Both the position numbers and the translations under genes were made by a program. A stretch of 64,000 nucleotides of DNA from a virus. The stretch spans positions 62,001 to 126,000 of the IMG/VR virus record IMGVR_UViG_3300042309_002578. One strand, written 5' to 3'. Positions 10,140-61,046 of the stretch are shown here, piece after piece. Within the stretch, counting starts at the first letter, position 1; the number at the start of each line of letters is the position of its first letter. The notes beneath the pieces are model-generated. The model did not search any database. It was not told the DNA's origin and was given only the letters and a program-made list of their open reading frames with translations.

Positions 10140-10290
10140 GTGGTGATCTCTCTCTCGTGCTGGTTGGCAGCACAGTATTTTCAGCTGGTCCGCATTTGCA
10201 CTGGGAAACATATAGAGGGAGTTGGGGCAAACCCTAATAAAACCCAGCGACATTGGGTACAGTTTGCCCAGACCAACTGGACCAGCTTAC
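10140..10290 (+). pseudogene. Duplicated 3' fragment of the hub gene's M23 peptidase
   Basis: The frame reads LVLVGSTVFSAGPHLHWETY, then a frameshift, and the DNA continues to match the end of the gene at 12700 (AACCCAGCGACATTGGGTAC, GTTTGCCCAGACCA). It has no start and no catalytic HxxxD half. The match then carries on into the repeat element at 10295, as it does downstream of the parent gene, so gene end and repeat were copied together. Confidence 0.75.
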
Positions 10291-10294
10291 GGCG

Positions 10295-10870
10295 CGTGAA
10301 CAAATTATTTTTATATTACAACCGTGTTACAAGAATTTTAGATATAGGTGCGTACTTGCACAACATATTGATTAAACCCAAAAATAAAGTTGGGAAGACG
10401 ATCACTCTTTATAAGGAAACTGCCATTTTTTCTTTGCATCTTCCCTTTACTTTTGACACACCTTGTGTTATACTCCGCTTTCGGTTTCATCACGAGAGAA
10501 TGAGGGTTTGCGGCGTGTTACAAGATTGGGTTTTGGCGGTATTAGACCAAGCCGAAAACAAATGTCCGTTTGGCAGTTTTGGGGGACGGCTGCGGGGGAA
10601 TATTGCCAAAAACTGAAACCCTTGCTACGTGGGGATTGCAATATGTTTTTGCCACCAAAGTTAGAGCAGACTTTGGGCTTTTAGCCGGTGGCACGGGCGT
10701 TAACGAGGTGTTGGTACAAATGTCCGTTTTATGATTTTGGGGATGGCTGCGGGGGAATATTGCTAAAAACACAAAACCATTGCTGTGTGGGGATTGCAAT
10801 ATGTTTTTGCCACCAAAGTTAGAGCAGACTTTGGGCTTTTAGCCGGTGGCACGGGCGTTAACGAGGTGTT
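10295..10870 (+). repeat. Dispersed promoter-module element, copy A (two modules)
   Basis: Conserved leader (TATTACAACCGTGTTACAAG, TAGGTGCGTACTTGCACAA), a GGGAAGA...ATCTTCCC hairpin, and a promoter TTTACT-17-TATACT at about 10449-10477. Then follow the CACGAGAGAATGAGGGTTTG segment and two copies of the module containing GGGGATTGCAATATG and the foldable GCCACC...GGTGGC segment. Small frames inside it shift between modules and look non-coding. Confidence 0.75.
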
Positions 10871-10878
10871 GGTACAAT

Positions 10879-10989
10879 TGGGGCGATAGATACTGGGGAA
10901 GAGATACAGATGGCAATGGGGAAAACCATCTTGGTAAGCTTTTGATGAAACTGCGCGAAGAGTATAGGAACGATAATCCTGTAGCTTAA
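10879..10989 (+). pseudogene. 3' fragment of a NADAR (YbiA-like) gene
   Basis: The frame ends DRYWGRDTDGNGENHLGKLL then MKLREEYR and a stop at 10989. D-x-Y-W-G...D-G-x-G-x-N-x-L-G-x-L-L-M-x-x-R is the C-terminal signature of the NADAR/YbiA fold, whose members are linked to ADP-ribose and NAD chemistry. Only about 36 of some 150 residues remain; the 5' side is replaced by repeat copy A. Not functional. Confidence 0.7.
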
Positions 10990-10990
10990 G

Positions 10991-11048
10991 AATATTGATC
11001 AAATAAATTGCAAAAGATAACTATATTGCAATTTATTTGATCAATATT
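10991..11048 (+). terminator. Long perfect hairpin terminator
   Basis: A 23-bp perfect stem (10991-11013 with 11026-11048) with a 12-nt loop, directly after the NADAR fragment. Confidence 0.7.
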
Positions 11049-12467: not shown

Positions 12468-12471
12468 GATT

Positions 12472-12665
12472 AAACAAATATTGTAATCCTCGCGCAGCAA
12501 GGCTTTTGTGTTTTAGCGATCGCTCCCCGCAGCCGTCTCCCCACCATAAACCAAATATTTGTACCAGCACCCTATCAACGCCTCGCACCATCGGTAAAAT
12601 CGACCTCCCTTTATTTTTTATTAAATAAAATATATTGTGCAAATACGCACCTGTATTAAAAAATC
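12472..12665 (-). repeat. Dispersed element, copy D (internally deleted)
   Basis: Matches the outer leader of copy A (AGGTGCGTATTTGCACAA on the minus strand) and one module end (GGGGAGACGGCTGCGGGG), but lacks the hairpin and promoter segment. It starts about 35 bp after the stop codon of the hub gene, the same junction that is duplicated at 10.3 kb. Confidence 0.7.
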
Positions 12666-12699
12666 CCGTAATACAGGTGTAATACGAAAAATAATTTGC

Positions 12700-15600
12700 T
12701 CACACACCGAAAGGTGCTTTAGGTGGTCTGGGCAGCCTGTACCCAATATCGCTGGGTTTTATTAGGGTTTGCCCCAACCCCCCTCTATATGTTTCCCAGT
12801 GCAAATGCGGTCCATTTGAAAGTCCTGTGCTGCCAACCAGCATTAAAGTTTGCCCTTTGGTTACTTGCTGTCCAGCCCTGACCTTGAAGCTTCCATTCCG
12901 CCCATGACTAAATGTCATAAATACAGTTTCACCTGTGTTTGGGAGTTTTAGAGCGATCGCCACCTGATTTCCATATCCGCCAATAAACTTGGTGTAAATC
13001 ACAGTCGCATTGCCTGGTGCAACTATCGGTGAACCATTTCTAGCACCAATGTCTACACCTTTGTGCATCCTTCTAACGCCTGTAACTGGATGTACCCTGT
13101 CGCCTATCCCGCTAGTTGTTGGTCCGTCTGCTGGCAAAATCAGTGAATTATTGCCAGCAGACGAAGCTTTAGGCGTGGCTTTAGGCGTGGCTTTAGGATT
13201 AATGGCATCACCTAGTGTTTGTCCTTGTATATCAGTAATTTTTGTATTCTGTACAAGATTGGGCGTTTCTGGTTCATTCATTAATGGGATATAGAATCGG
13301 ATCTTTGTCCGACCATCTTTAAAGCTGTGGCTTATCTCCTCGATTCTTAATTCAGTTGCAAACTCTTGATTAAATATTCTTGGTGATAGGGCAATTATCT
13401 CTCCAGGAACTAACAACAATGTGTCTTTCACTGTTCGCAAAGTTAAGCTTCCTTCATATCCCTTAATTCTAGAGTTTTCATTTAATAAAACATCTTGTTC
13501 TGCACCACCGTCAATTAAATCAATTGCTCCGGGGGCTACTTTGGGTAATCCGGTCGCATCATTTATATCTATTCCTGCATTTAAAGTTCCTATATTTATG
13601 CTTGAAGATAGATTTCTTGTTGTAAATATCTCATTGTTTGTTTTTTGGTTTTGGATTTTTTCTGAAAATGTAGCACCATTTTTATCTGTTTCTTCTGTTT
13701 CAATTATTGTTATTCCATCTGTGTAAGTTGTTGTAGTTTTCTTAATAGTTTTTTCTATTGCAGTCCCCATTGTGATTGTTGTCGTTTTTGTCTCAACATC
13801 TGTTATTTTCAGATACTCTTTTGTGCGTTGAGTTCTGTTTTCAACATTAACAGTTGTATTATTTGGTCTTGTAAATGTTTTTGATGTAACTTTTTCTGGC
13901 TCAACAATTTTTGACTCTCTTGGGGCTTTCTTCTGCTTGTCTAGTGCTTGACTTAATTGATTTAATTTAACAATACCAACTTTGGGTGCTGATTTGTTTG
14001 GTTTTATTATCCCACCAGAAGGTGGTGCAGACTTACCTGTAACACCGTTTGACATTGCTCCAGTCTTGTTTTCTACATTATGTTGATCAACAACACCTGT
14101 TTGTCTATTTATTGAAACCTTGTTACTTGCTCCATTCTGCTCTAATTGCGACTCCAAAACGCCTGGGATATATCTTGGTGACGCTGTTGCCTTATCTGAA
14201 AAATTGCAGCTTATAAAAAGCTCTTCATCTACAACAAATCCGGTAAACTTTGGTCTGGCATAAGGTTCAATAATTAGCTCATTTGACCTTGGGCTATCGC
14301 TGATTTTGAATCCAATTCTTCGCGCTTCTCTTTCTAAAACTTGATATACAGTCTGACCATCTTGCGGTAAATAATGGTATGACAAACCTTGCCCTTCCAT
14401 AACTAATTTAAGGTTATATTCTTCTGCAACTCTTTGTGCAAATTCTCTAAGGGTTATATTTTGAAAGCTTTGTGTTTGGGGTATTCTTGATAATTTCCAT
14501 CGCACTGACTTGCCAGAGAACGACGTTTTTTCAACACCATACTCCTTGGAGCAACTGGCTTCTGTGTGGATAAAATGAAAAGCAATTAACTGCGTAAAAC
14601 TATTAGAGCCGACCATCATTTCAATAATTAATTCAGTCCCTTTTCTGGTATCTTCCTCTGGCTGTGCCGAAGTTTTCAGTCTTTTTGTATCGTCAGAGTT
14701 TTTAGTCCCCTGCATAGTTTTCGCAAACTGCTTTAATCCCGATTTTGATTTATTTTCGGCATTTGGTGTTATTGGTGTTATTGAGCTTAATGCTTTGACA
14801 ATCCTTTGTGCATAGGGCAATAAAGCCTGTTTTAATGCTGTAAAATTATTATTCGCCACACCGCTTACAACTAAGTTTGTGAGATTGCTATTCAGTGCAT
14901 CAATTTCTAAAATTGTTAAACCTTTTGCAATAGAGCCAAGTTTCTCGTCTGGAAATCTGCGGATATCTTTCCCTGCCAGTCCCCAATAAAAACTAAAAAA
15001 ACCGAATTCTTTGGCTAGGGCTACATCCATCTCGCTCAAACTTTTACCACTTACATCGTATTTTGAGCCAGCAATAACGCCTGGTTTCCCACCACCTGGC
15101 TGGTCAAAATGCAACTCAAGAGAATATGCGCCTGTTGATTCTTTTAGTTGTTGCACACTTGTGGTGTATGCTTTCCTGGCATTATCGCCTCTTGCTGACG
15201 GTAATGGTGGTGGTGCGATTACTGTAAATCCGGCTTTTGTTAATTCGGAGCTTACCACCTGTGCTGCAATCTCAGTGGCAACAGACTCCTTTGTTCTGGT
15301 TTCGCCACCATAATTTACCGAGGTGTTGGTTGTTCCGCTTGTTCCGCTATTAATATCAAGCCGATGCCCAGATGTGACAATTATTTTCTTTGTTGCTGCA
15401 ACTTTTGGATATGGCCAATCACCAACCTTGGATTGATTTACTGTAGTTTTGGGTGAGGCATTTTTTGCCGCTGCTTTTACTCCCCCACCTTCACTTGATG
15501 CAGACTTGATCAGTTCATCAACATTGCTTAATTGCTGTCCGCGAATCTTCTCAAAACCTCCTCCGGCTCTATAAATCCTGACAGCTTCCATGTACTGTTT

Positions 15601-16431
15601 CATTTGATCTTCTCTGATGCCATTAACCATTCTTCTGGCATTGCGAAAATCCGGTTTATCCGTCAAAAGTCCAAATTGATTAATGTTTTTGTATCCAGTT
15701 GGTGGTCTACTCTTTAGAAGATAGACCGCAATTTTAGCCGCAGTGTCTGGGTTTTGCGCCAATTCTGGATTATTAACTAGGTCTAGTCCCACAGCTTTCC
15801 CTGTGGTTTCATAAACTCCGCGCCCAGTTATTTGTAGATATCCGCGTCCCTTGTATTTCACTGCCCAGTCTCTTCTGCCGTTGTTGCCGATACCCGAAAC
15901 ATTGGCGTATCGTGCAAGATAACTATCTGATCCTTGTTCCGCTAAAAAGCGGGTATCACCAACTGGATATTTTGTGGCCGCATCACCTGTTTCGTGTGAT
16001 GCGGTCGCCAATAAAAAGATTATTTGATTCTTGTTCCATCCTGCTTTTAGTGCTTCACGGACTAAAAGCATTTCATTGTCTTTCCAAGTTAATTTTGTTC
16101 CATTAGGTATTGACGATGCTGTTGGTGATACTGTTGGTGTTGTCCCATCTATTGATGTGTTTGGTACATTGTCCGGTTTCTGATCATTAATTACTTTTGA
16201 ATTAAGTAATTCACTATCTACTATAATTCCGCCAAACTTTATACTCAACGCTCTGTACTTTGCAGCAATTTTTAACCCAGGATCGTATAAAGTAAAGCTT
16301 CCGGTGCTTGATGCTTTGTTTTCGCTAAGATTTACGTTTATATCTGCTGTCAATATACCATCTCCAGATTGCCAAACATCGTCACCTATTCTTACGCGAG
16401 CTATTTTAGATGTAAATTCGTAAAAAGTCAT
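12700..16431 (-). CDS. Baseplate hub with GH19-like, amidase and M23 lytic domains, 1243 aa
   Basis: Central spike/hub of a contractile tail, with three cell-wall-cutting domains. In order: gpD-like hub start (about 1-75); GH19-like glycosidase (about 115-290; FLLATASHETGD, YKGRGYLQITGRGVYE); N-acetylmuramoyl-amidase_3-like (about 340-550; IIVTSGHRLD, SLELHFDQPG); gpD-like middle (about 590-780); Ser/Thr/Lys-rich linker; late gpD strand region (LRIEEISHSF); and C-terminal M23 endopeptidase (about 1110-1230; HKGVDIG, GPHLHWE). ATG at 16431 has AAGGT upstream; 16449 is the alternative. Such a protein would open the thick cyanobacterial peptidoglycan at three bond types. Catalytic activity of each domain is inferred from motifs. 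Confidence 0.85.
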   Translation of the reverse strand: MTFYEFTSKIARVRIGDDVWQSGDGILTADINVNLSENKASSTGSFTLYDPGLKIAAKYRALSIKFGGIIVDSELLNSKVINDQKPDNVPNTSIDGTTPTVSPTASSIPNGTKLTWKDNEMLLVREALKAGWNKNQIIFLLATASHETGDAATKYPVGDTRFLAEQGSDSYLARYANVSGIGNNGRRDWAVKYKGRGYLQITGRGVYETTGKAVGLDLVNNPELAQNPDTAAKIAVYLLKSRPPTGYKNINQFGLLTDKPDFRNARRMVNGIREDQMKQYMEAVRIYRAGGGFEKIRGQQLSNVDELIKSASSEGGGVKAAAKNASPKTTVNQSKVGDWPYPKVAATKKIIVTSGHRLDINSGTSGTTNTSVNYGGETRTKESVATEIAAQVVSSELTKAGFTVIAPPPLPSARGDNARKAYTTSVQQLKESTGAYSLELHFDQPGGGKPGVIAGSKYDVSGKSLSEMDVALAKEFGFFSFYWGLAGKDIRRFPDEKLGSIAKGLTILEIDALNSNLTNLVVSGVANNNFTALKQALLPYAQRIVKALSSITPITPNAENKSKSGLKQFAKTMQGTKNSDDTKRLKTSAQPEEDTRKGTELIIEMMVGSNSFTQLIAFHFIHTEASCSKEYGVEKTSFSGKSVRWKLSRIPQTQSFQNITLREFAQRVAEEYNLKLVMEGQGLSYHYLPQDGQTVYQVLEREARRIGFKISDSPRSNELIIEPYARPKFTGFVVDEELFISCNFSDKATASPRYIPGVLESQLEQNGASNKVSINRQTGVVDQHNVENKTGAMSNGVTGKSAPPSGGIIKPNKSAPKVGIVKLNQLSQALDKQKKAPRESKIVEPEKVTSKTFTRPNNTTVNVENRTQRTKEYLKITDVETKTTTITMGTAIEKTIKKTTTTYTDGITIIETEETDKNGATFSEKIQNQKTNNEIFTTRNLSSSINIGTLNAGIDINDATGLPKVAPGAIDLIDGGAEQDVLLNENSRIKGYEGSLTLRTVKDTLLLVPGEIIALSPRIFNQEFATELRIEEISHSFKDGRTKIRFYIPLMNEPETPNLVQNTKITDIQGQTLGDAINPKATPKATPKASSAGNNSLILPADGPTTSGIGDRVHPVTGVRRMHKGVDIGARNGSPIVAPGNATVIYTKFIGGYGNQVAIALKLPNTGETVFMTFSHGRNGSFKVRAGQQVTKGQTLMLVGSTGLSNGPHLHWETYRGGLGQTLIKPSDIGYRLPRPPKAPFGV

Positions 16432-16591
16432 ATATTTTAATACCTTCATTGAGATAATTTTATCATCAAAAATAGTGTTTGACTTTAAGTGTTATCGCCC
16501 GAACAAAAACTATTTCCATATTTCAGCATTAACACCGAAAGAAATAAACTATGAGAGCAAAATTTACTTCATTTAATCAAAACAGAACAAA

Positions 16592-18071: not shown

Positions 18072-18611
18072 ATGTCTACGCCCAAAATAACTGTAATTGA
18101 CGAACATGACTGCTTTGGTCAGATTAAAGAATTTGTATCCGCAAATCCACAAATCATAAAACCAAAATACTTTATTGCACCGAATAAAAATTTTTTACAG
18201 TCAATGACGGAAATTTGTCTTCAATCTAATCTCGTTATTATCCACCGTCACATTTGGTTGGACGACTGTCACAAAAACGATAAGCCTTGTCAACAAATAG
18301 TGGCAGAACTAAAAAAACAAATTGCACCAATTCCAATTATTGAAGTTGGCGGAGATGCAGTAGATGCAAAACGGTGTCCAAGTGATATGCTTGCTGCATT
18401 TACTCAAATTGCGATCGCAGTTAAAAACCTGGGAACACTGATAGGGGCGCAAGTGTCGCACCCAAGCCCAGCTTACAACGGCGGATTGATGACTGTCTCT
18501 AAAATAGAGATGTTAGGAAACGGAACAATTGGTGCTACCCTCAAAAACAACACTGGAGAAGAAAGAAAATATTACTCGCTGCAAAACCTGTCGGCTTACG
18601 CCACTAATTGA
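18072..18611 (+). CDS. Hypothetical protein, 179 aa
   Basis: The N-terminal 120 residues resemble a Rossmann-like or receiver-like alternation (ITVIDEHDCFGQIKEFV, SNLVIIHRHIWLDDC, PIPIIEVGGDAVD), but the diagnostic residues of response regulators are not convincing. A short C-terminal beta domain follows (GLMTVSKIEMLGNGTIGATL). The leader ends GGCAACAATG. It is bracketed by the shared promoter and a 23-bp terminator. Confidence 0.6.
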   Translation: MSTPKITVIDEHDCFGQIKEFVSANPQIIKPKYFIAPNKNFLQSMTEICLQSNLVIIHRHIWLDDCHKNDKPCQQIVAELKKQIAPIPIIEVGGDAVDAKRCPSDMLAAFTQIAIAVKNLGTLIGAQVSHPSPAYNGGLMTVSKIEMLGNGTIGATLKNNTGEERKYYSLQNLSAYATN

Positions 18612-18622
18612 TACTTTCGCTT

Positions 18623-18680
18623 ATTTAATATAAAAACAGGGATGCCAATACACACTAGCATCCCTGTTTTTATATTAAAT
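18623..18680 (+). terminator. Very strong bidirectional hairpin terminator
   Basis: A 23-bp perfect stem (18623-18645 with 18658-18680) with a 12-nt loop; both arms end in A/T runs. It marks the exact border of the tandem-module array. Confidence 0.85.
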
Positions 18681-19795
18681 AACATATTGCAATCCCCACA
18701 CAACAAGGGTTTCGTGTTTTTGGCAATATTCCCCGCAGCCGTTCCCCCCAAGCCGCAAACCAACCATTTGCACCAACGCCCTAACAACGCCCGTGCCACC
18801 GGCTAAAAACCTAAAATCTGCCCAGTCTTGTCGGTAAAAACATATTGCAATCCCCGCACAGCAAGGGTTTCGTGTTTTTGGCAATATTCCCCCGCAGCCG
18901 TTCCCCCAAGCCGCAAACCAACCATTTGCACCAACGCCCTAACAACGCCCGTGCCACCAGCTAAAAACCTAAAATCTGCCCAGTCTTGTCGGTAAAAACA
19001 TATTGCAATCCCCGCACAGCAAGGGTTTCGTGTTTTTGGCAATATTCCCCCGCAGCCGTTCCCCCCAAGCCGCAAACCAACCATTTGCACCAACGCCCTA
19101 ACAACGCCCGTGCCACCGGCTTAAAAACCTAAAATCTGTCCAGCCTTGGCGACAAAAAACATATTGCAATCCCCGCACAGCAAGGGTTTCGTGTTTTTGG
19201 CAATATTCCCCCGCAGCCGTCCCCAAAATCCACGAACCAAACATTTGTACCAACACCCCACTAACACCCGTGCCACCGGCTAAAAACCCAAAATCTGCCC
19301 TAGCTTTGTCGGTAAAAACATATTGCAATCCCTATGTAGCAAGGACTTTGTGTTTTTGGCAATATTCCCCCGCAGCCGTCCCATTTGTACCAACACCTCA
19401 CTAACACCCGTGCCACCGGCTAAAAAACCTAAAATCTGCACCAACTTTGGTGACAAAACATATTGCAATCCCCGCGCAGTAAGGCTTCCAGCTTTGTCGG
19501 TATTTCCCCCGCAGCCGTCTCCAAACCGGCAAAACAGACATTCATTCCCAGCCTGGACTAACGCCGATAAAATCAAAATCTTGTAACACGCCTCAAACCC
19601 GCATTCTCTCGTTAAAAAATCTGTGGCGGATTATAACATAAGGTGTGTCAAAAGTAAAGGGAAGATACAAAGAAAAAAGGGCAATTTCCTATAAGAAAGT
19701 GATCATCTTCCCAATTTTATTTTTGATTAAAATCAAAAAATTATGCAAGTACGCACCTATGTCTAAAATTCTTGTAATACGTTTGTAATATAAAA
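18681..19795 (-). repeat. Dispersed promoter-module element, copy B (six tandem modules)
   Basis: Module starts (AACATATTGCAATCCC) at 18681, 18839, 18997, 19158, 19317 and 19457 give periods of 158, 158, 161, 159 and 140 bp. Read on the minus strand, the leader with TAGGTGCGTACTTGCATAA, the GGGAAGAT...ATCTTCCC hairpin and promoter TTTACT-17-TATAAT (about 19632-19663) come first, then AACGAGAGAATGCGGGTTTG, then the modules. Each holds GGGGATTGCAATATG, a GGTGGC-containing fold and CGGCTGCGGGGGAATATTGC. Unequal periods break any reading frame, so I treat it as non-coding. A separate gene's promoter diverges from its upstream end. Confidence 0.85.
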
Positions 19796-19813: not shown

Positions 19814-19842
19814 TTGACTTTATTTGTTAACCATAGCAATAT
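19814..19842 (+). promoter_or_regulatory. GTTAACC-family promoter
   Basis: TTGACT, 17 bp with TTGTTAACCATAG, CAATAT; upstream of 19880 and back-to-back with repeat copy B. Confidence 0.8.
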
Positions 19843-31589: not shown

Positions 31590-31725
31590 CAAATTACATA
31601 TAATACCATAAAGTGGGTACAAAAGTCAAGGGAAGATACAAAGAAAAAAGGGTAGTTTCCTGTAAGAAAGTGATCATCTTCCCAGCTTTATTTTTCAGTG
31701 AAATTATAAATGTATTACAAGCACC
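31590..31725 (-). repeat. Dispersed element, copy E (hairpin and promoter only)
   Basis: Contains the GGGAAGATACAAAG to GATCATCTTCCC hairpin and, on the minus strand, TTGACT-18-TATTAT at the position of the element promoter. No modules follow; the sequence beyond holds only a short GTGTTACATGATTTTTGGC resemblance. Confidence 0.65.
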
Positions 31726-43483: not shown

Positions 43484-46400
43484 TTATTTTACTTTTATGA
43501 TGAAATTAGACGCTAAAAATGGCTGCATATTGTTGTGAGGTTGACTATCCCCTGTAGGATTCACTGATACTGCAATACCATAATTTATACTTGTTTCAGT
43601 AATATTTGAGCCTCCCCAATCAGTTGTATGTCTTCCCCAAGCATAATCATTTCTAGATCCAGCCCCTCCTGGTTGATATCCGTCACTTCCATCAGGATAT
43701 CCTGGAAAATTAATTTGAACTTGAGTTAAAGTATGGGAATGCCCAGGATCACTAATAGTATGAATATGCGCTCCTGTGGTGCTAGTGTGTCCATGACTAG
43801 GCATTTCATTAGTAGTCAAAGTATGAGTAGCCGCACCCCCAGTAGCTCCTAGTGCGTAATCTCCTCCCGCGCCAAGGAAAACTCTTCCTCGACTATCTGG
43901 CAGACGAACAGTTGTTGTTCCATTACCGCTGTACGGCGCACCTAGCGCGACAAGATCGGCAACAAGTTCTGTGCTAATTTCAGAGCGCAGAACTTCCTGC
44001 CCATGCGCCCATTTCCAGCGAGAGGAAGGGAGTGTGCTTCGGAAATATTTCTCAATCTTGCCAACAGGGATAGCTGCGTCAACCATATCCCGCAATTCTG
44101 CTGTTGTTATTTTATTTTGTTTTAAATCCAAAGCAGATTTTAGAGATTTTGGTGTTATTGCTCTTTTGTCGTCAAGCCCGTCTATCGCTTCTTCATCTGT
44201 TGTCAGTTCCACAAATCCAGGGCTTTCAGTTGTGGCATAAACGCCAGAATCTGTTGGTATTGGGGCTAAAAACCTCGATCTGGTATCAAAATTGAGTTGC
44301 GCCGATCTTAAATCTAGGGTTGAATTTGGGTATAAGAACAGCCTTTCCGTGACAGTAAGCCTCTTAAAAACCTTAGAGTCGCTTTCACCAGAATTTAAGT
44401 TTGTTTCGTCCCCTGTCTTTGTGTCAATTATCTTGTCACCAATAAAATAATTTCCATCCTGATCCATCCCACAGGAATAAACGCGCCCACCATTAGTCTC
44501 TCGTTTCATCTTGGCAACGCTTTCAGCTAGAGTTAAGACCCTAGTATGAAATTTTGGCAATGCTGATGAGTAGTTGTTGTACCCAACCCACTCCCAAGTA
44601 TGTCCAGACGCTCTAATTAATGACGGCTTTATAAACTCAGGATAAATATTCACCTGTTGATTATCTTTTCTGATTAATCTTTCGTTACTGGATGTTTCTA
44701 GTAACTGGATTGTCTGTTCTTCGGGTATTGTTAATGCTAACAATACCGTTTTGGCAGCGATATATGACCTACTTAAAACTGAGTTCGGATCAGGCATATC
44801 CACATTTAGTTGTGGATATAGATCGTCATTTTTGTCGTTGATGCCGTCTGCATTTAAAAGCGAGATATAGTAACTACCAGATGGCAGGACATTTCCTGCG
44901 CTGTCCACACTTTTTACAGACGAAATAAACAGATTTTTATTAATCTGTAAATTTGGCATTTCGTCTGCATTAAATTTTAAAATATAGTTTTCTTGTGGAT
45001 TTCTATTCACACCATCAACTCTAAACCAAAATATTCTATCGTCTGGTTTTCTTTCGTCTGGGTTTCTTTTTATAATAACTGGAAGCGTGTCAATAAGATT
45101 TCTGTTTGTGTAAATATCATTATTAGTATCTAACACATTAAAATAGTGTCCATTGCTATCTGTTCCCACTAAATTCACCGAAGAAACAAGGCGTGCTGAG
45201 TATTCTACATTATCAGCACCAACTACATAAATTAATTCATTTTGTAAAAGCGAGAATGGCGAGATTCTTTGAGGGTTAAATGGTCCATCTATATATATTT
45301 TTGTCGCTGTTGACAAAGATGAAACAAAGCCAGAAATAGCATAATTTAAAACATTGCTAACTATCGGCTTTGGTGGCACTATTTTTGTGATCGTCCCGCC
45401 TGAATCTTGTGGCAGGGCATGATTGCTGTATCCATCAGCAAAGAGCGAAATATCGCCAAAATTTGAACAACTATTTGTGACGCTTAATTCGCCACCGCTT
45501 AAAGTTTTAAAGTGTGTGCCAGCGCAAACAACAAAGCAGGAAACTATCTGCATATAACCATTGTTTATTGCACTAAAGGAAAAATGTCTCCATGTGTCTT
45601 TATATGATTTGCCACCTGGGCTATTAAGATTGACGACAAAAGCTCTTGGATCTGACTGTAAGCTAACATTCGTGAACTGGGATGCAACTATTGATTTTAG
45701 ACCCTGCAACTTGCTGCCGTCGCAGGATATTCCGCACATTCCAAAACGCGATCGCAGAGAACAATTAAATACGTATACAGAACTTCCATTGACGCTATTA
45801 ATGTCTAAAAATCCATCATCGTCTACTGATGTATTGTCTGTTGCCAATGCTGTTATTATTGTCTCCTCGCTGACTGCATCTAGTTCTCCAGCGTTCATTG
45901 GTGGATTTAATGTGTTAGAAAATGCTCTCTCTATTTTTGGGTAATAGCCATAGGATTCATCTGAAAGCTCAAGTGTTGATGCTGGCTCAGTTGCGCTACA
46001 CAGGTGGTGTGTGGTTTTTATGCTTTTGTTGTCGAAAAAAGTTAACCCTGTGATAAGAGAACCGCCTGTCGCCTTAAATATTGCTGTTCTTCCGATACTT
46101 GAATTGTCTGGGGAACACTCGCATTGCAAATTAGGATCGTATGGATTATTTAGCTCCCAGGTTGCTACATCGCCAACGTAGCGCGGAATAATTTTAGTTT
46201 TTCTAAGGTCTGAGGCAACTATAGAGCATCCCCTTGGAATAACAACACCACCTGTTGGCGGATTAAAATACGAATATTTGGTGACAACAACAATGTCGCC
46301 TACCCCACTCCAACTGCCAACAATATTTTTAATCCTGTAACTGCCAGTATTATTAATTGCAGTATCAATTATTGCTCTGCTGCCGTTACCACCAAATATT

Positions 46401-49067: not shown

Positions 49068-50305
49068 TGTCTGAAAAATCGTGGCAATTAAATCGTCCTA
49101 TATATTTGCGATTGCCTAATGAAAGTGGTGCTTATCAGGGCAACGAAATTGTTGATGCAATCACAACTCCGTGGGATGAGCAACTTGTAGACATTAAAAA
49201 TACATTATTGAATTTCAACAATGATTTTATCAACCCCGATACAGCAAGGGTTGATGCCCTTGATTGGTTAGCACAGCTATCTGGTTTTACAGGAGAGTAT
49301 TGGGACACGAACTGGACTGCAGCCATTAAACGAGAACTTATTAAAAATTCTCATACTAAAATTTGGTCGCATAAAGGTACTGTAATGCTTTTGCAGTACC
49401 TACTTGATTTATTTGGGCTTGACGCAGTAGTTTATGCTGAAAACGTATGGTTTATAGGAATTACCGCTATTGGTTCACCTGTTGGGGGTAGAACCCTATA
49501 TTACGCAATAAAATTGTTTATCCCTGGTGCAGAAAATCGGCAATTTTACACGAGGAACTCAAAAGAATGGAAATTTATTGAGCGTTTAAATCGTCTGTAT
49601 ATGCCGTGTTGGTGTGGCAGTATACCAACAAACGGAAACTTTATTCATTATGAAAAATTTATTATTGGTGTTAGTGCTGTCGGAGATCCGATTTGGTCTG
49701 GATCAATTAACAAGAATCCCATAATCACAGTGAATTTTGGGTCGGGAATTGCAATTAATTCGTCTATGCAAATTGGTGCTAATTTCAGTATTGGTTCTGG
49801 TTTTGATACCAGAATTATTCGACCAATTATTGCCAATTTTGGTATTGGTAATTCTACCAATACAACAAAAGTAATAACCTCTAACTTTGGTATTGGTAGT
49901 GGTTTTGATGCCGCAAAAGTAATAACTTCTAATTTCGGTATTGGTTCTGGTTTTGATGCCGCAAAAGTAATAACTTCTAATTTCGGTATTGGTTCTGGTT
50001 TTGATGCCAGAATTATTCGACCAATTATTGCCAACTTTGGTATTGGTAATTCTACCAATACAACAAAAGTAATAACCTCTAACTTTGGTATTGGTTCTGG
50101 TTTTGATGCCGCAAAAGTAATAACTTCTAATTTCGGTATTGGTTCTGGTTTTAATTCATCAAAAGTTATAGTTACTGACTTTGGTATTGGTGGTGGACTT
50201 AGTTCATCAATAACTATAGTTGCTGACTTTGGTATTGGTAATGCCGACAATACAACTAAAGTTATACTTACCAACTTTGGTATTGGTTCTGGCTTTGATT
50301 TATGA
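49067..50305 (+). CDS. Baseplate gpI-like protein with NFGIG repeat tail, 412 aa
   Basis: The N-terminal 200 residues match tail protein I: TARVDALDWLAQLSGFTGEY, WTAAIKRELIKNSHTKIWSH, KGTVMLLQYLLDLFG. The position right after J agrees. From about residue 220 the protein becomes a chain of some twelve repeats around NFGIGSGFDAAKVITS (16 aa), probably beta-solenoid or fiber-like. Such an extension on gpI is unusual and may act as fiber attachment or adhesin. Confidence 0.8.
   Translation: MSEKSWQLNRPIYLRLPNESGAYQGNEIVDAITTPWDEQLVDIKNTLLNFNNDFINPDTARVDALDWLAQLSGFTGEYWDTNWTAAIKRELIKNSHTKIWSHKGTVMLLQYLLDLFGLDAVVYAENVWFIGITAIGSPVGGRTLYYAIKLFIPGAENRQFYTRNSKEWKFIERLNRLYMPCWCGSIPTNGNFIHYEKFIIGVSAVGDPIWSGSINKNPIITVNFGSGIAINSSMQIGANFSIGSGFDTRIIRPIIANFGIGNSTNTTKVITSNFGIGSGFDAAKVITSNFGIGSGFDAAKVITSNFGIGSGFDARIIRPIIANFGIGNSTNTTKVITSNFGIGSGFDAAKVITSNFGIGSGFNSSKVIVTDFGIGGGLSSSITIVADFGIGNADNTTKVILTNFGIGSGFDL
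49735..50300 (+). repeat. Coding repeats, about 48 bp, with a 198-bp duplication
   Basis: Repeats of NFGIGxG every 14-18 residues. A larger block starting AGAATTATTCGACCAATTAT recurs at 49811 and 50009, showing a 198-bp (66-codon) duplication. Confidence 0.9.
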
Positions 50306-50408
50306 ACAACTACTTCCGTGTAGCCTTAAATATGTTTTTGTGCTATTTGTTCGGTATGTAAATAAATTTGATACAATTTTTATATTGAGGGAAAAATAGG
50401 TAAAAATT

Positions 50409-52610: not shown

Positions 52611-52625
52611 GTTGTAAATTATTTT

Positions 52626-53159
52626 TTATTCAAGGTCAACACCAGGTAGATAAAAATCTGTTAAAATTTTTGCCACTTCTTGGGGTATTTCTTCCAGGTC
52701 AGACAAATTTAGGAATATTATCTTTCCTATTGCCATTGTTTTGTTTTTCTCGGTTGCACAATAAAATGTGTCCTCAGTATAAAATGTATCTTCGCCATCG
52801 CTGTTTTTTTGTTTTGTCACTACCACTTCTAAATCTAAATGCTCTAACGTGAAAGATTCGGTCACGTCTGCTTGATTGTCTTTGTTTTGTTCAAAGTTAA
52901 TACCAGGAAGATAAAATTCTGTCAAAAATTTTGCTACCTCTTGGGGTATTTCTTTCAAATCAGACAAAGTATGAAATATTATTTTTCCTATTGCCATTGT
53001 TTTGTTTTTCTCGGTTATGCCATAAATTGTGTCGTCAGCATAAAATGTATTTTCGCCATCGCTGTTTTTTTGTTTTGTCACTGCCACTTCCCAATCTAAA
53101 TGCTCTAACATAAAAGATTCGGTCACGTCTGCTTGATTGTCTTTGTTTTGTTCAGTCAT
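52626..53159 (-). CDS. Hypothetical protein made of two near-identical halves, 177 aa
   Basis: ATG at 53159 follows AAAAAAAAGATA; the frame upstream merely translates the promoter. Residues 3-89 and 90-176 repeat the same domain (EQNKDNQADVTESF, KQKNSDGE, TEKNKTMAIGKIIF, EIPQEVAK, FYLPG). The halves differ at about 18 positions. Each half is alpha-beta and acidic. No family recognised. Shared promoter at 53191. Confidence 0.65.
   Translation of the reverse strand: MTEQNKDNQADVTESFMLEHLDWEVAVTKQKNSDGENTFYADDTIYGITEKNKTMAIGKIIFHTLSDLKEIPQEVAKFLTEFYLPGINFEQNKDNQADVTESFTLEHLDLEVVVTKQKNSDGEDTFYTEDTFYCATEKNKTMAIGKIIFLNLSDLEEIPQEVAKILTDFYLPGVDLE
52632..53153 (-). repeat. 261-bp in-frame tandem gene duplication
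   Basis: Two 87-codon copies in one gene; differences between them are mostly amino-acid-changing. Confidence 0.85.
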
Positions 53160-53190: not shown

Positions 53191-53219
53191 ATAATACTGT
53201 GGTTAACAAATAAAGTCAA
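53191..53219 (-). promoter_or_regulatory. GTTAACC-family promoter
   Basis: Minus strand: TTGACT, 17 bp with TTGTTAACCACAG, TATTAT, preceded by the A/T-rich AAATAAATTAAAAATGG. Confidence 0.85.
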
Positions 53220-53862: not shown

Positions 53863-53891
53863 ATATTACTATGGTTAACAAATAAAGTCAA
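53863..53891 (-). promoter_or_regulatory. GTTAACC-family promoter
   Basis: Minus strand: TTGACT, 17 bp with TTGTTAACCATAG, TAATAT. Repeat copy C starts behind it and reads the other way. Confidence 0.85.
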
Positions 53892-53904
53892 GCGCATTTT
53901 TAAT

Positions 53905-54262
53905 TTATTTTTATATTACAAACGTATTACAGAAATTTTGGATATAGGTGCGTACTTGCATAATTTTTTGATTTTAATCAAAAATAAAATTGGGAAGATG
54001 ATCACTTTCTTATAGGAAACTGCCCTTTTTTCTTTGTATCTTCCCTTTACTTTTGACACGCCTTATGTTATAATCCGCCACAGATTTTTTAACGAGAGAA
54101 TGCGGGTTTGAGGCGTGTTACAAGATTTTGATTTTGGCGACATTGGTCTAGGTTGAGAACGAATGCCTGTCTGGCAGTTTTGGAAAAGGCTGTGGGGGGA
54201 ATATCCTTAAAACACCAAAGCCTTGCTACGTGGGGATTACAATATGTTTTTATTGCAACATT
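53905..54262 (+). repeat. Dispersed promoter-module element, copy C (one partial module)
   Basis: Leader TATTACAAACGTATTACAG and TAGGTGCGTACTTGCATAA, GGGAAGAT...ATCTTCCC hairpin, promoter TTTACT-17-TATAAT at about 54048-54076, AACGAGAGAATGCGGGTTTG, then one shortened module ending GGGGATTACAATATG. Closest relative of copy B. Confidence 0.8.
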
Positions 54263-60590: not shown

Positions 60591-61046
60591 ATGTCTCAAT
60601 TCTATAAAGTAGTTCGTGGACGAGTGATACACGACGGCGAAGCGAAAAACGTCGGTGACTTTATTTTCGCTTCGCCAAAAGAAATGGAGGGTATTGCTGG
60701 CGTTGGCAGTGTTGTACGAGTTGAGCAAGGTGAAGTTTCATTCTCGTTTTTACAAGAAAATGGACTACTTCCTGCTACTCTCCCAACTGTTGTTTCTAAA
60801 CCTGAAATACCGACAATCCCAACTGTTGTTTCTAAACCTGAAATACCGACAATCCCAACTGTTGTTTCTAAACCCGAAATACCGACAATCCCAACTGTTG
60901 TTTCTAAACCCGAAACTCCCGAAGCACCTACAATCCCCCCTGTTATTTCAGATATAAACGAGCCTGATCTTGGTTTGTCTCTTGGGATTGATCCAGTTGT
61001 CAAAACGGAAGCAGTCGGAAAAAGAAATCGCAGCGCAACAGCTTAG
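60591..61046 (+). CDS. Head protein with Pro-rich repeats, 151 aa
   Basis: N-terminal 60 residues are a small beta domain (YKVVRGRVIHDGEAKNVGDF, GSVVRVEQGEVSF). Four 12-residue repeats PTVVSKPEIPTI follow, then an acidic end. It lies between capsid and gp36-like connector, where Mu-like phages have a small head protein. The repeat would be an extended, stiff linker. No family recognised. Confidence 0.65.
   Translation: MSQFYKVVRGRVIHDGEAKNVGDFIFASPKEMEGIAGVGSVVRVEQGEVSFSFLQENGLLPATLPTVVSKPEIPTIPTVVSKPEIPTIPTVVSKPEIPTIPTVVSKPETPEAPTIPPVISDINEPDLGLSLGIDPVVKTEAVGKRNRSATA
60783..60926 (+). repeat. 36-bp coding tandem repeat, four copies
   Basis: Units start ACTGTTGTTTCTAAACC at 60786, 60822, 60858 and 60894, nearly identical, hence prone to length change. 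Confidence 0.95.

What the first reader, a model, noticed from the sequence alone, without database searches (positions are those of the whole stretch)
18681..19795. Promoter-driven tandem array of foldable ~159-bp modules
Six modules follow a TTTACT-17-TATAAT promoter and a long hairpin on the minus strand. In copy A each module contains GCCACC ... GGTGGC enclosing two smaller hairpins (CCAAAGT/ACTTTGG and GGC-TTTTA-GCC), a three-way-junction-like fold. Module number differs between copies (6, 2, 1, partial). Periods of 140-161 bp exclude a conserved frame. A repeated non-coding RNA, a sponge for a protein or RNA, or a replication or packaging signal are possible.
Basis: partly seen in the sequence, partly recalled or inferred. 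Interest (0 to 1): 0.75.

Follow-up and report, generated by a model that had tools for sequence, protein, structure and literature searches.

The report
Dispersed noncoding promoter-driven repeats in cyanophage
A virus of freshwater cyanobacteria carries at least eleven copies of a non-coding element, a hairpin plus a strong promoter, most of them followed by one to six tandem ~158-base repeats; the repeats are real and probably transcribed, but they do not share a conserved RNA shape and their job is still unknown.

Summary
The array is real. It is one of 10 dispersed copies in a 138-kb cyanophage record, and an 11th lies in a related contig. Each full copy has an AT-rich leader with TATTACAA-type sites, a 54-bp hairpin, a TTTACT-17-TATAAT promoter with extended -10, then 1-6 G-rich ~158-bp modules. 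Several copies end at an inverted repeat resembling a terminator. Two copies are hairpin plus promoter alone. Seven of the eight copies that sit between co-directional genes point against both neighbours, so they look like stand-alone untranslated transcription units.

The claimed modular RNA fold fails. Units fold no better than shuffled sequence, RNAalifold z is -0.25, and the three-way junction shows no compensatory change. Only the hairpin beside the promoter is conserved as a structure (z -4.8).

Unit number varies between strains. No relative was found in Rfam, isolated phages, plasmids, an exact 20-mer scan of GTDB genomes, or IMG/VR outside near-identical strains.

Best reading: a PeSL-like promoter-terminator cassette that spread through the phage and carries a recombination-expanded untranslated RNA. 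A sequence-based decoy is my first choice for function (about 0.35), followed by passenger repeat (0.3) and transcription-primed replication site (0.22). None of these functions was tested.

The parts
18621..18682 (.). perfect 25-bp inverted repeat with AT-rich outer arms, terminator-like; separates the array from the convergent gene 18072-18611
   Evidence: the simple terminator scan did not list it, because of its arm and loop rules
18683..18840 (-). module unit 5 (158 bp), ends at GATTGCAATATG
18841..18998 (-). module unit 4 (158 bp)
18999..19159 (-). module unit 3 (161 bp)
19160..19318 (-). module unit 2 (159 bp)
19319..19458 (-). module unit 1 (140 bp, lacks about 19 bp of the variable linker)
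19459..19589 (-). leader-fused first unit (U0): starts at GTGTTACAAGATTTT, ends at the first GATTGCAATATG
19630..19658 (-). promoter TTTACT-17-TATAAT with extended -10 (TGTTATAAT); predicted start near 19623
   Evidence: conserved across copies
19659..19712 (.). hairpin GGGAAGAT...ATCTTCCC just upstream of the promoter; T-rich on both outer sides, so possibly a two-way terminator
   Evidence: RNAalifold z -4.83 over the leader copies
19735..19792 (-). AT-rich leader with direct TATTACAA / GTATTACAAG sites
19814..19842 (+). promoter of the divergent gene (TTGACTTTATTTGTTAACCATAGCAATAT class), back to back with the element; neighbour, not part of it
10302..10885 (+). second copy (c7): leader, hairpin, promoter, two modules; inverted repeat at 10991-11048 beyond it
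12471..12697 (-). degraded copy (c8): leader and one module end; hairpin and promoter lost
31600..31710 (-). leader-only copy (c10): hairpin and promoter (TTGACT-18-TATTAT), no modules
53875..54252 (+). single-module copy (c11)

Best explanation
A family of dispersed, stand-alone, untranslated transcription units in a cyanophage. Shown by sequence: the core is a hairpin plus an extended -10 sigma70-type promoter, present at nine of the ten sites in the record (the tenth copy has lost it). In eight copies there is a G-rich module, single or tandemly repeated up to six times. The core also occurs without modules, and unit number differs between strains. Inferred: the core works as a promoter-terminator cassette that spread through the phage by recombination, and modules multiply by unequal recombination between their repeated ends. 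The host RNA polymerase makes an untranslated RNA of about 0.2-1 kb that runs against the neighbouring genes. That RNA most likely acts as a decoy through two short conserved blocks (GGCTGCGGGGGA and GATTGCAATATG) rather than through a shared fold, with unit number setting the dose. The decoy step is the weakest.
For: Ten copies in the record, an 11th beyond its end in a related contig. Hairpin arms and -35/-10 are the most conserved parts (mean pairwise 0.92-1.00), against 0.72 for the linker and 0.45 for the least conserved stretch. In the old copy c4 the promoter spacer is 0.58 identical to the others and the hairpin interior 0.62, while the 3' arm is 1.00. Two hairpin-plus-promoter solo copies. 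Hairpin fold z -4.83. Seven of eight copies between co-directional genes oppose both (one-sided binomial 9/256, about 0.035). Inverted repeats beyond four copies. Conserved columns cluster in two blocks (p 0.037). Strain G001 has an exact extra copy of unit 1 of copy c3. Unit lengths of 140-161 bp exclude a frame.
Against: No expression data. No target is known: no toxin or defence gene was found among the scanned neighbours and Rfam is silent. Module conservation could partly reflect recent spread and gene conversion. The orientation bias is modest. The promoter match alone is not above chance in a scan (8 found, 6.0 expected); its weight comes from conservation across copies.
Confidence: 0.4

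Rival explanations
1. Passenger repeat: a promoter-terminator cassette of the PeSL kind whose value lies in recombination and genome shuffling. The modules are non-functional tandem repeats that ride along, expand by slippage or unequal crossing-over and decay.
For: Solo cores exist. The modules have no shared fold. Copy c8 has lost the core and c4 has a short inverted stretch inside its first module end. Copies c7 and c8 share a duplicated piece of the neighbouring gene end. Unit number varies between strains.
Against: The promoters point away from genes and yet are kept, even in old copies. Two module blocks stay conserved.
Confidence: 0.3
2. Transcription-primed replication or recombination start sites: an AT-rich leader with TATTACAA-type sites and a hairpin stands next to a promoter whose G-rich non-template strand favours a persistent RNA-DNA hybrid that primes DNA synthesis, as at R-loop origins of T4 (from general knowledge).
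For: All eight module copies are G-skewed on the transcribed-RNA strand (+0.18 to +0.39), and the 909-bp array has GC 0.50 and skew +0.36 against a 99th percentile of 0.249 for 600-bp windows. The leader is AT-rich with repeated sites. The phage has its own DnaE and RecJ.
Against: The G-skew is inherited from one ancestral module, so it is not independent evidence. Cumulative GC skew has its extremes near 27 kb and 133 kb, so it gives no clear support for starts at all the copies. Ten origins would be many.
Confidence: 0.22
3. Structured modular RNA (three-way junction repeated six times) acting through its fold.
For: One copy (c7) folds neatly into the proposed shape.
Against: MFE z-scores around zero or positive, consensus-fold z -0.25, zero two-sided changes, pairing 87.5% against 87.7% in shuffles.
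Confidence: 0.05

Closest known systems
PeSLs (promoter early stem-loop cassettes) of T4-like phages (Arbiol 2010, Comeau 2014; those papers could not be opened, known here from their titles, from PMC4503421 and from memory)
   Same: short composite of promoter and stem-loop, intergenic, many near-identical copies in one phage, apparently spread by recombination
   Different: not a T4-like phage; most promoters point away from the flanking genes; a non-coding module array follows the promoter
pseudo-ToxI repeats of phage PhiTE (PMC3475682)
   Same: phage-encoded non-coding tandem repeat whose unit number changes by slippage or recombination; partial units at the ends of the array
   Different: units are ~158 bp, not 36 nt; no conserved fold detected; no known toxin partner; ten dispersed copies instead of one locus
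R-loop replication origins (T4, ColE1; from memory)
   Same: promoter followed by a G-rich non-template strand next to AT-rich DNA
   Different: ten or more copies; no replication evidence

Membership tests
PeSL cassette | promoter and stem-loop joined as one conserved unit in several copies | tested here: met
   hairpin and promoter conserved in nine copies, two of them without modules
PeSL cassette | intergenic, drives or insulates flanking genes | tested here: not met
   intergenic, but 7 of 8 copies between co-directional genes point against both flanking genes, so they do not drive them; insulation could not be tested
PeSL cassette | T4-type phage | tested here: not met
   major capsid protein matches Mu-like heads such as Pseudomonas phage B3
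Type III antitoxin or pseudo-ToxI RNA | short tandem repeats (36 nt in ToxI; about 34-50 nt in the class, from memory) | tested here: not met
   units of 140-161 bp
Type III antitoxin or pseudo-ToxI RNA | conserved RNA fold per repeat (a pseudoknot in ToxI) | tested here: inconclusive
   no conserved nested fold; pseudoknots were not modelled
Type III antitoxin or pseudo-ToxI RNA | toxin gene beside the repeats | tested here: not met
   no Pfam, PHROG or PADLOC toxin among the proteins next to the copies that were scanned; a phage mimic would not need one
R-loop origin | replication starts at the site | not testable with these tools
   only the G-skew was measured
Known RNA family (Rfam 15) | covariance model match | tested here: not met
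   no match in the whole window at gathering score; only chance-level matches in the array with permissive filters

The most novel reading that the evidence does not exclude
A phage genome seeded with ten or more stand-alone non-coding RNA genes, each a promoter cassette followed by a repeat array of adjustable length. Together they flood the cyanobacterial host with a sequence-based decoy RNA against a host defence or regulator, with dose tuned by unequal recombination of the repeats.
Probability: 0.28. Interest if true: 0.75.

Novelty: new variant of a known kind. Interest (0 to 1): 0.45.

Why it matters
Phage genomes are compact, yet this family takes up several percent of one (about 5-6 kb) without coding for protein, keeps promoters that face away from genes, and changes unit number between near-identical strains. 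If the RNA is a decoy, it would give a second, larger-scale example of the PhiTE strategy, in cyanobacteria. If it is a replication site, it would be a repeated transcription-primed origin system. Either way it can be tested by RNA-seq of a single infection.

Tried and rejected
Coding repeat: rejected, because unit lengths shift the frame. Conserved RNA fold of the module, on either strand: rejected. Known RNA family or tRNA: none. Host-derived repeat: an exact 20-mer scan of 84,980 GTDB genomes gave one match (23 nt when extended) in a Chlorobiaceae MAG, about what chance gives; diverged copies would be missed. Relatives in isolated phages and plasmids: none. More IMG/VR relatives, by module, leader and gene-promoter patterns: only near-identical strains. 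Relatives by capsid and DnaE: only strains, or distant phages without such arrays in the stretches seen. Two named cyanophages (PaV-LD; first 50 kb of Dfl-JY23): no comparable array.

Full report
WHAT IS THERE. The window is bases 62001-126000 of a 138,383-bp virus record. The array at window 18683-19589 on the minus strand is real: Tandem Repeats Finder scores it 1134-1150 and it has six copies of the end block GATTGCAATATG, with unit lengths of 140, 159, 161, 158 and 158 bp after a leader-fused first unit. On the element strand the order is: an AT-rich leader with TATTACAA / GTATTACAAG sites (19735-19792), a 54-bp hairpin GGGAAGAT...ATCTTCCC (19659-19712), a TTTACT-17-TATAAT promoter with extended -10 (19658-19630), a second GTGTTACAAGATTTT site (about 19575-19589), the units, and a 25-bp perfect inverted repeat (18621-18682).

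COPIES. The same element occurs ten times in the record, in both orientations: record positions 11.7 (1 module end), 26.4 (leader only), 42.0 (4), 44.1 (2), 53.5 (4), 72.3 (2), 74.5 (degraded), 80.7 (this one, 6), 93.6 (leader only) and 115.9 kb (1). A further array lies at the end of a related contig, beyond the end of our record. Three near-identical IMG/VR contigs carry the family. In one of them (L014) unit 1 of the 42-kb copy is present twice, letter for letter, where our record has it once. Unit number is therefore not fixed, with the reservation that L014 is the end of an assembled contig.

HOST. HIP1 (GCGATCGC) occurs 69 times against 0.6 expected from base composition. This cyanobacterial signature, with partial protein matches to Planktothrix, Pseudanabaena and Dolichospermum phages, makes a cyanobacterial host very likely. 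The capsid resembles Mu-like heads, and the phage has DnaE and RecJ. The freshwater origin is inferred from the hosts of those phages and from memory of the metagenome, not from a record.

THE FOLD CLAIM. Thirteen units were folded on both strands against 200 dinucleotide shuffles each: on the element strand z runs from -0.32 to +2.63, so the units are no more stable than shuffled sequence. RNAalifold of 15 distinct units gives -16.04 kcal/mol against -15.34 (sd 2.75) for column shuffles, z -0.25; the opposite strand gives z 0.05. The proposed three-way junction was counted on the alignment: 87.5% of cells pair against 87.7% in shuffles, no pair has a change on both sides, and covariation is slightly below shuffles. 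The perfect GCCACC...GGTGGC form exists only in the copy at 10.6 kb. The conserved module end on its own gives z -1.25. The hairpin beside the promoter is different: its arms are nearly invariant while its interior diverges, z -4.83 over the leader copies.

WHAT IS CONSERVED. Mean pairwise identity over seven full leaders is 0.93 and 1.00 for the hairpin arms, 0.94 for the -35 region, 0.92 for the extended -10, 0.80 for the spacer, 0.72 for the linker, 0.45 for the least conserved stretch and 0.86 for the module end. In the most diverged copy (44 kb) the spacer has fallen to 0.58 and the hairpin interior to 0.62, while the 3' arm stays at 1.00. Copies 44 kb and 93.6 kb have TTGACT at -35, a change towards consensus, with an 18-bp spacer. 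Within modules, conserved columns cluster (p 0.037) in GGCTGCGGGGGA and GATTGCAATATG. The copies at 26.4 and 93.6 kb keep hairpin and promoter but have no modules. The hairpin-promoter core is therefore the unit that spreads, and the modules are an attachment.

ORIENTATION. Of the eight copies that lie between two co-directional genes, seven point against both (ORFs were picked by length, not by a gene finder; binomial 9/256). Five of these leaders stand back to back with a gene promoter of another class, TTGACTTTATTTGTTAACCATAGTAATAT, of which about 20 were found in the record. The elements thus do not drive the adjacent genes. Inverted repeats beyond the copies at 26, 53, 72 and 81 kb would end the transcripts. 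This is the main evidence for stand-alone untranslated RNAs. No transcript has been seen.

COMPOSITION. The arrays have GC 0.42-0.50 (genome 0.376) and G-skew +0.18 to +0.39 on the element strand; the 909-bp array here exceeds the 99th percentile of 600-bp windows. This is what an R-loop-prone region looks like, but it is inherited from one ancestral module and counts once.

FUNCTION. A promoter kept in old copies that face no gene argues that transcription or its product matters. Without a shared fold, an RNA that works through short repeated sequence blocks (a decoy) is my first choice (about 0.35 for that step). A passenger repeat on a PeSL-like cassette (0.3) and a transcription-primed replication site (0.22) are close rivals. 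The nearest tested precedent for a phage tandem-repeat RNA is pseudo-ToxI of PhiTE, whose repeats expand under selection (PMC3475682), but unit size, fold and partner all differ. PeSLs (cited in PMC4503421) match the core but not the orientation or the phage type.

ODD DETAIL. One gene outside the window (record 45558-46286, plus strand) contains a 24-nt stretch exactly complementary to the RNA of the module end; five shuffled controls gave no match of 16 nt or more. It may be an antisense target or a recombination trace; I cannot tell which.

Noticed in passing
record 45768-45791 (locus L038:5768-5791), outside the window: 24-nt exact match of the module end inside a gene on the opposite strand, so the element RNA would pair with that gene's mRNA.
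   Followed up: partly
window 19814-19842, 53191-53219, 53863-53891 and about 17 more in the record: About 20 gene promoters share TTGACTTTATTTGTTAACCATAGTAATAT with a conserved GTTAACC core, probably a regulated promoter class with an operator.
   Followed up: partly
window 10200-10270 and about 12700-12770: The 3' end of the 1249-aa gene (12700-16449, peptidase M23-like end) appears to be duplicated beside the copy at 10.3 kb, together with the element; apparently a recombination product.
   Followed up: no
record 44355-44392 (L038:4355-4392): About 38 bp of the G-rich module block is inverted inside the first module end of the 44-kb copy.
   Followed up: partly
window 49779-50312: 48-bp and 198-bp in-frame repeats within a 412-aa open reading frame.
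   Followed up: no
window 52624-53145 and 60781-60915: Two in-frame tandem duplications inside open reading frames (2 x 261 bp; 3.8 x 36 bp).
   Followed up: no
IMG/VR 3300002835_000185 (L028): This contig continues several kb beyond the end of our record and ends in another array, so the 138-kb record is incomplete.
   Followed up: partly
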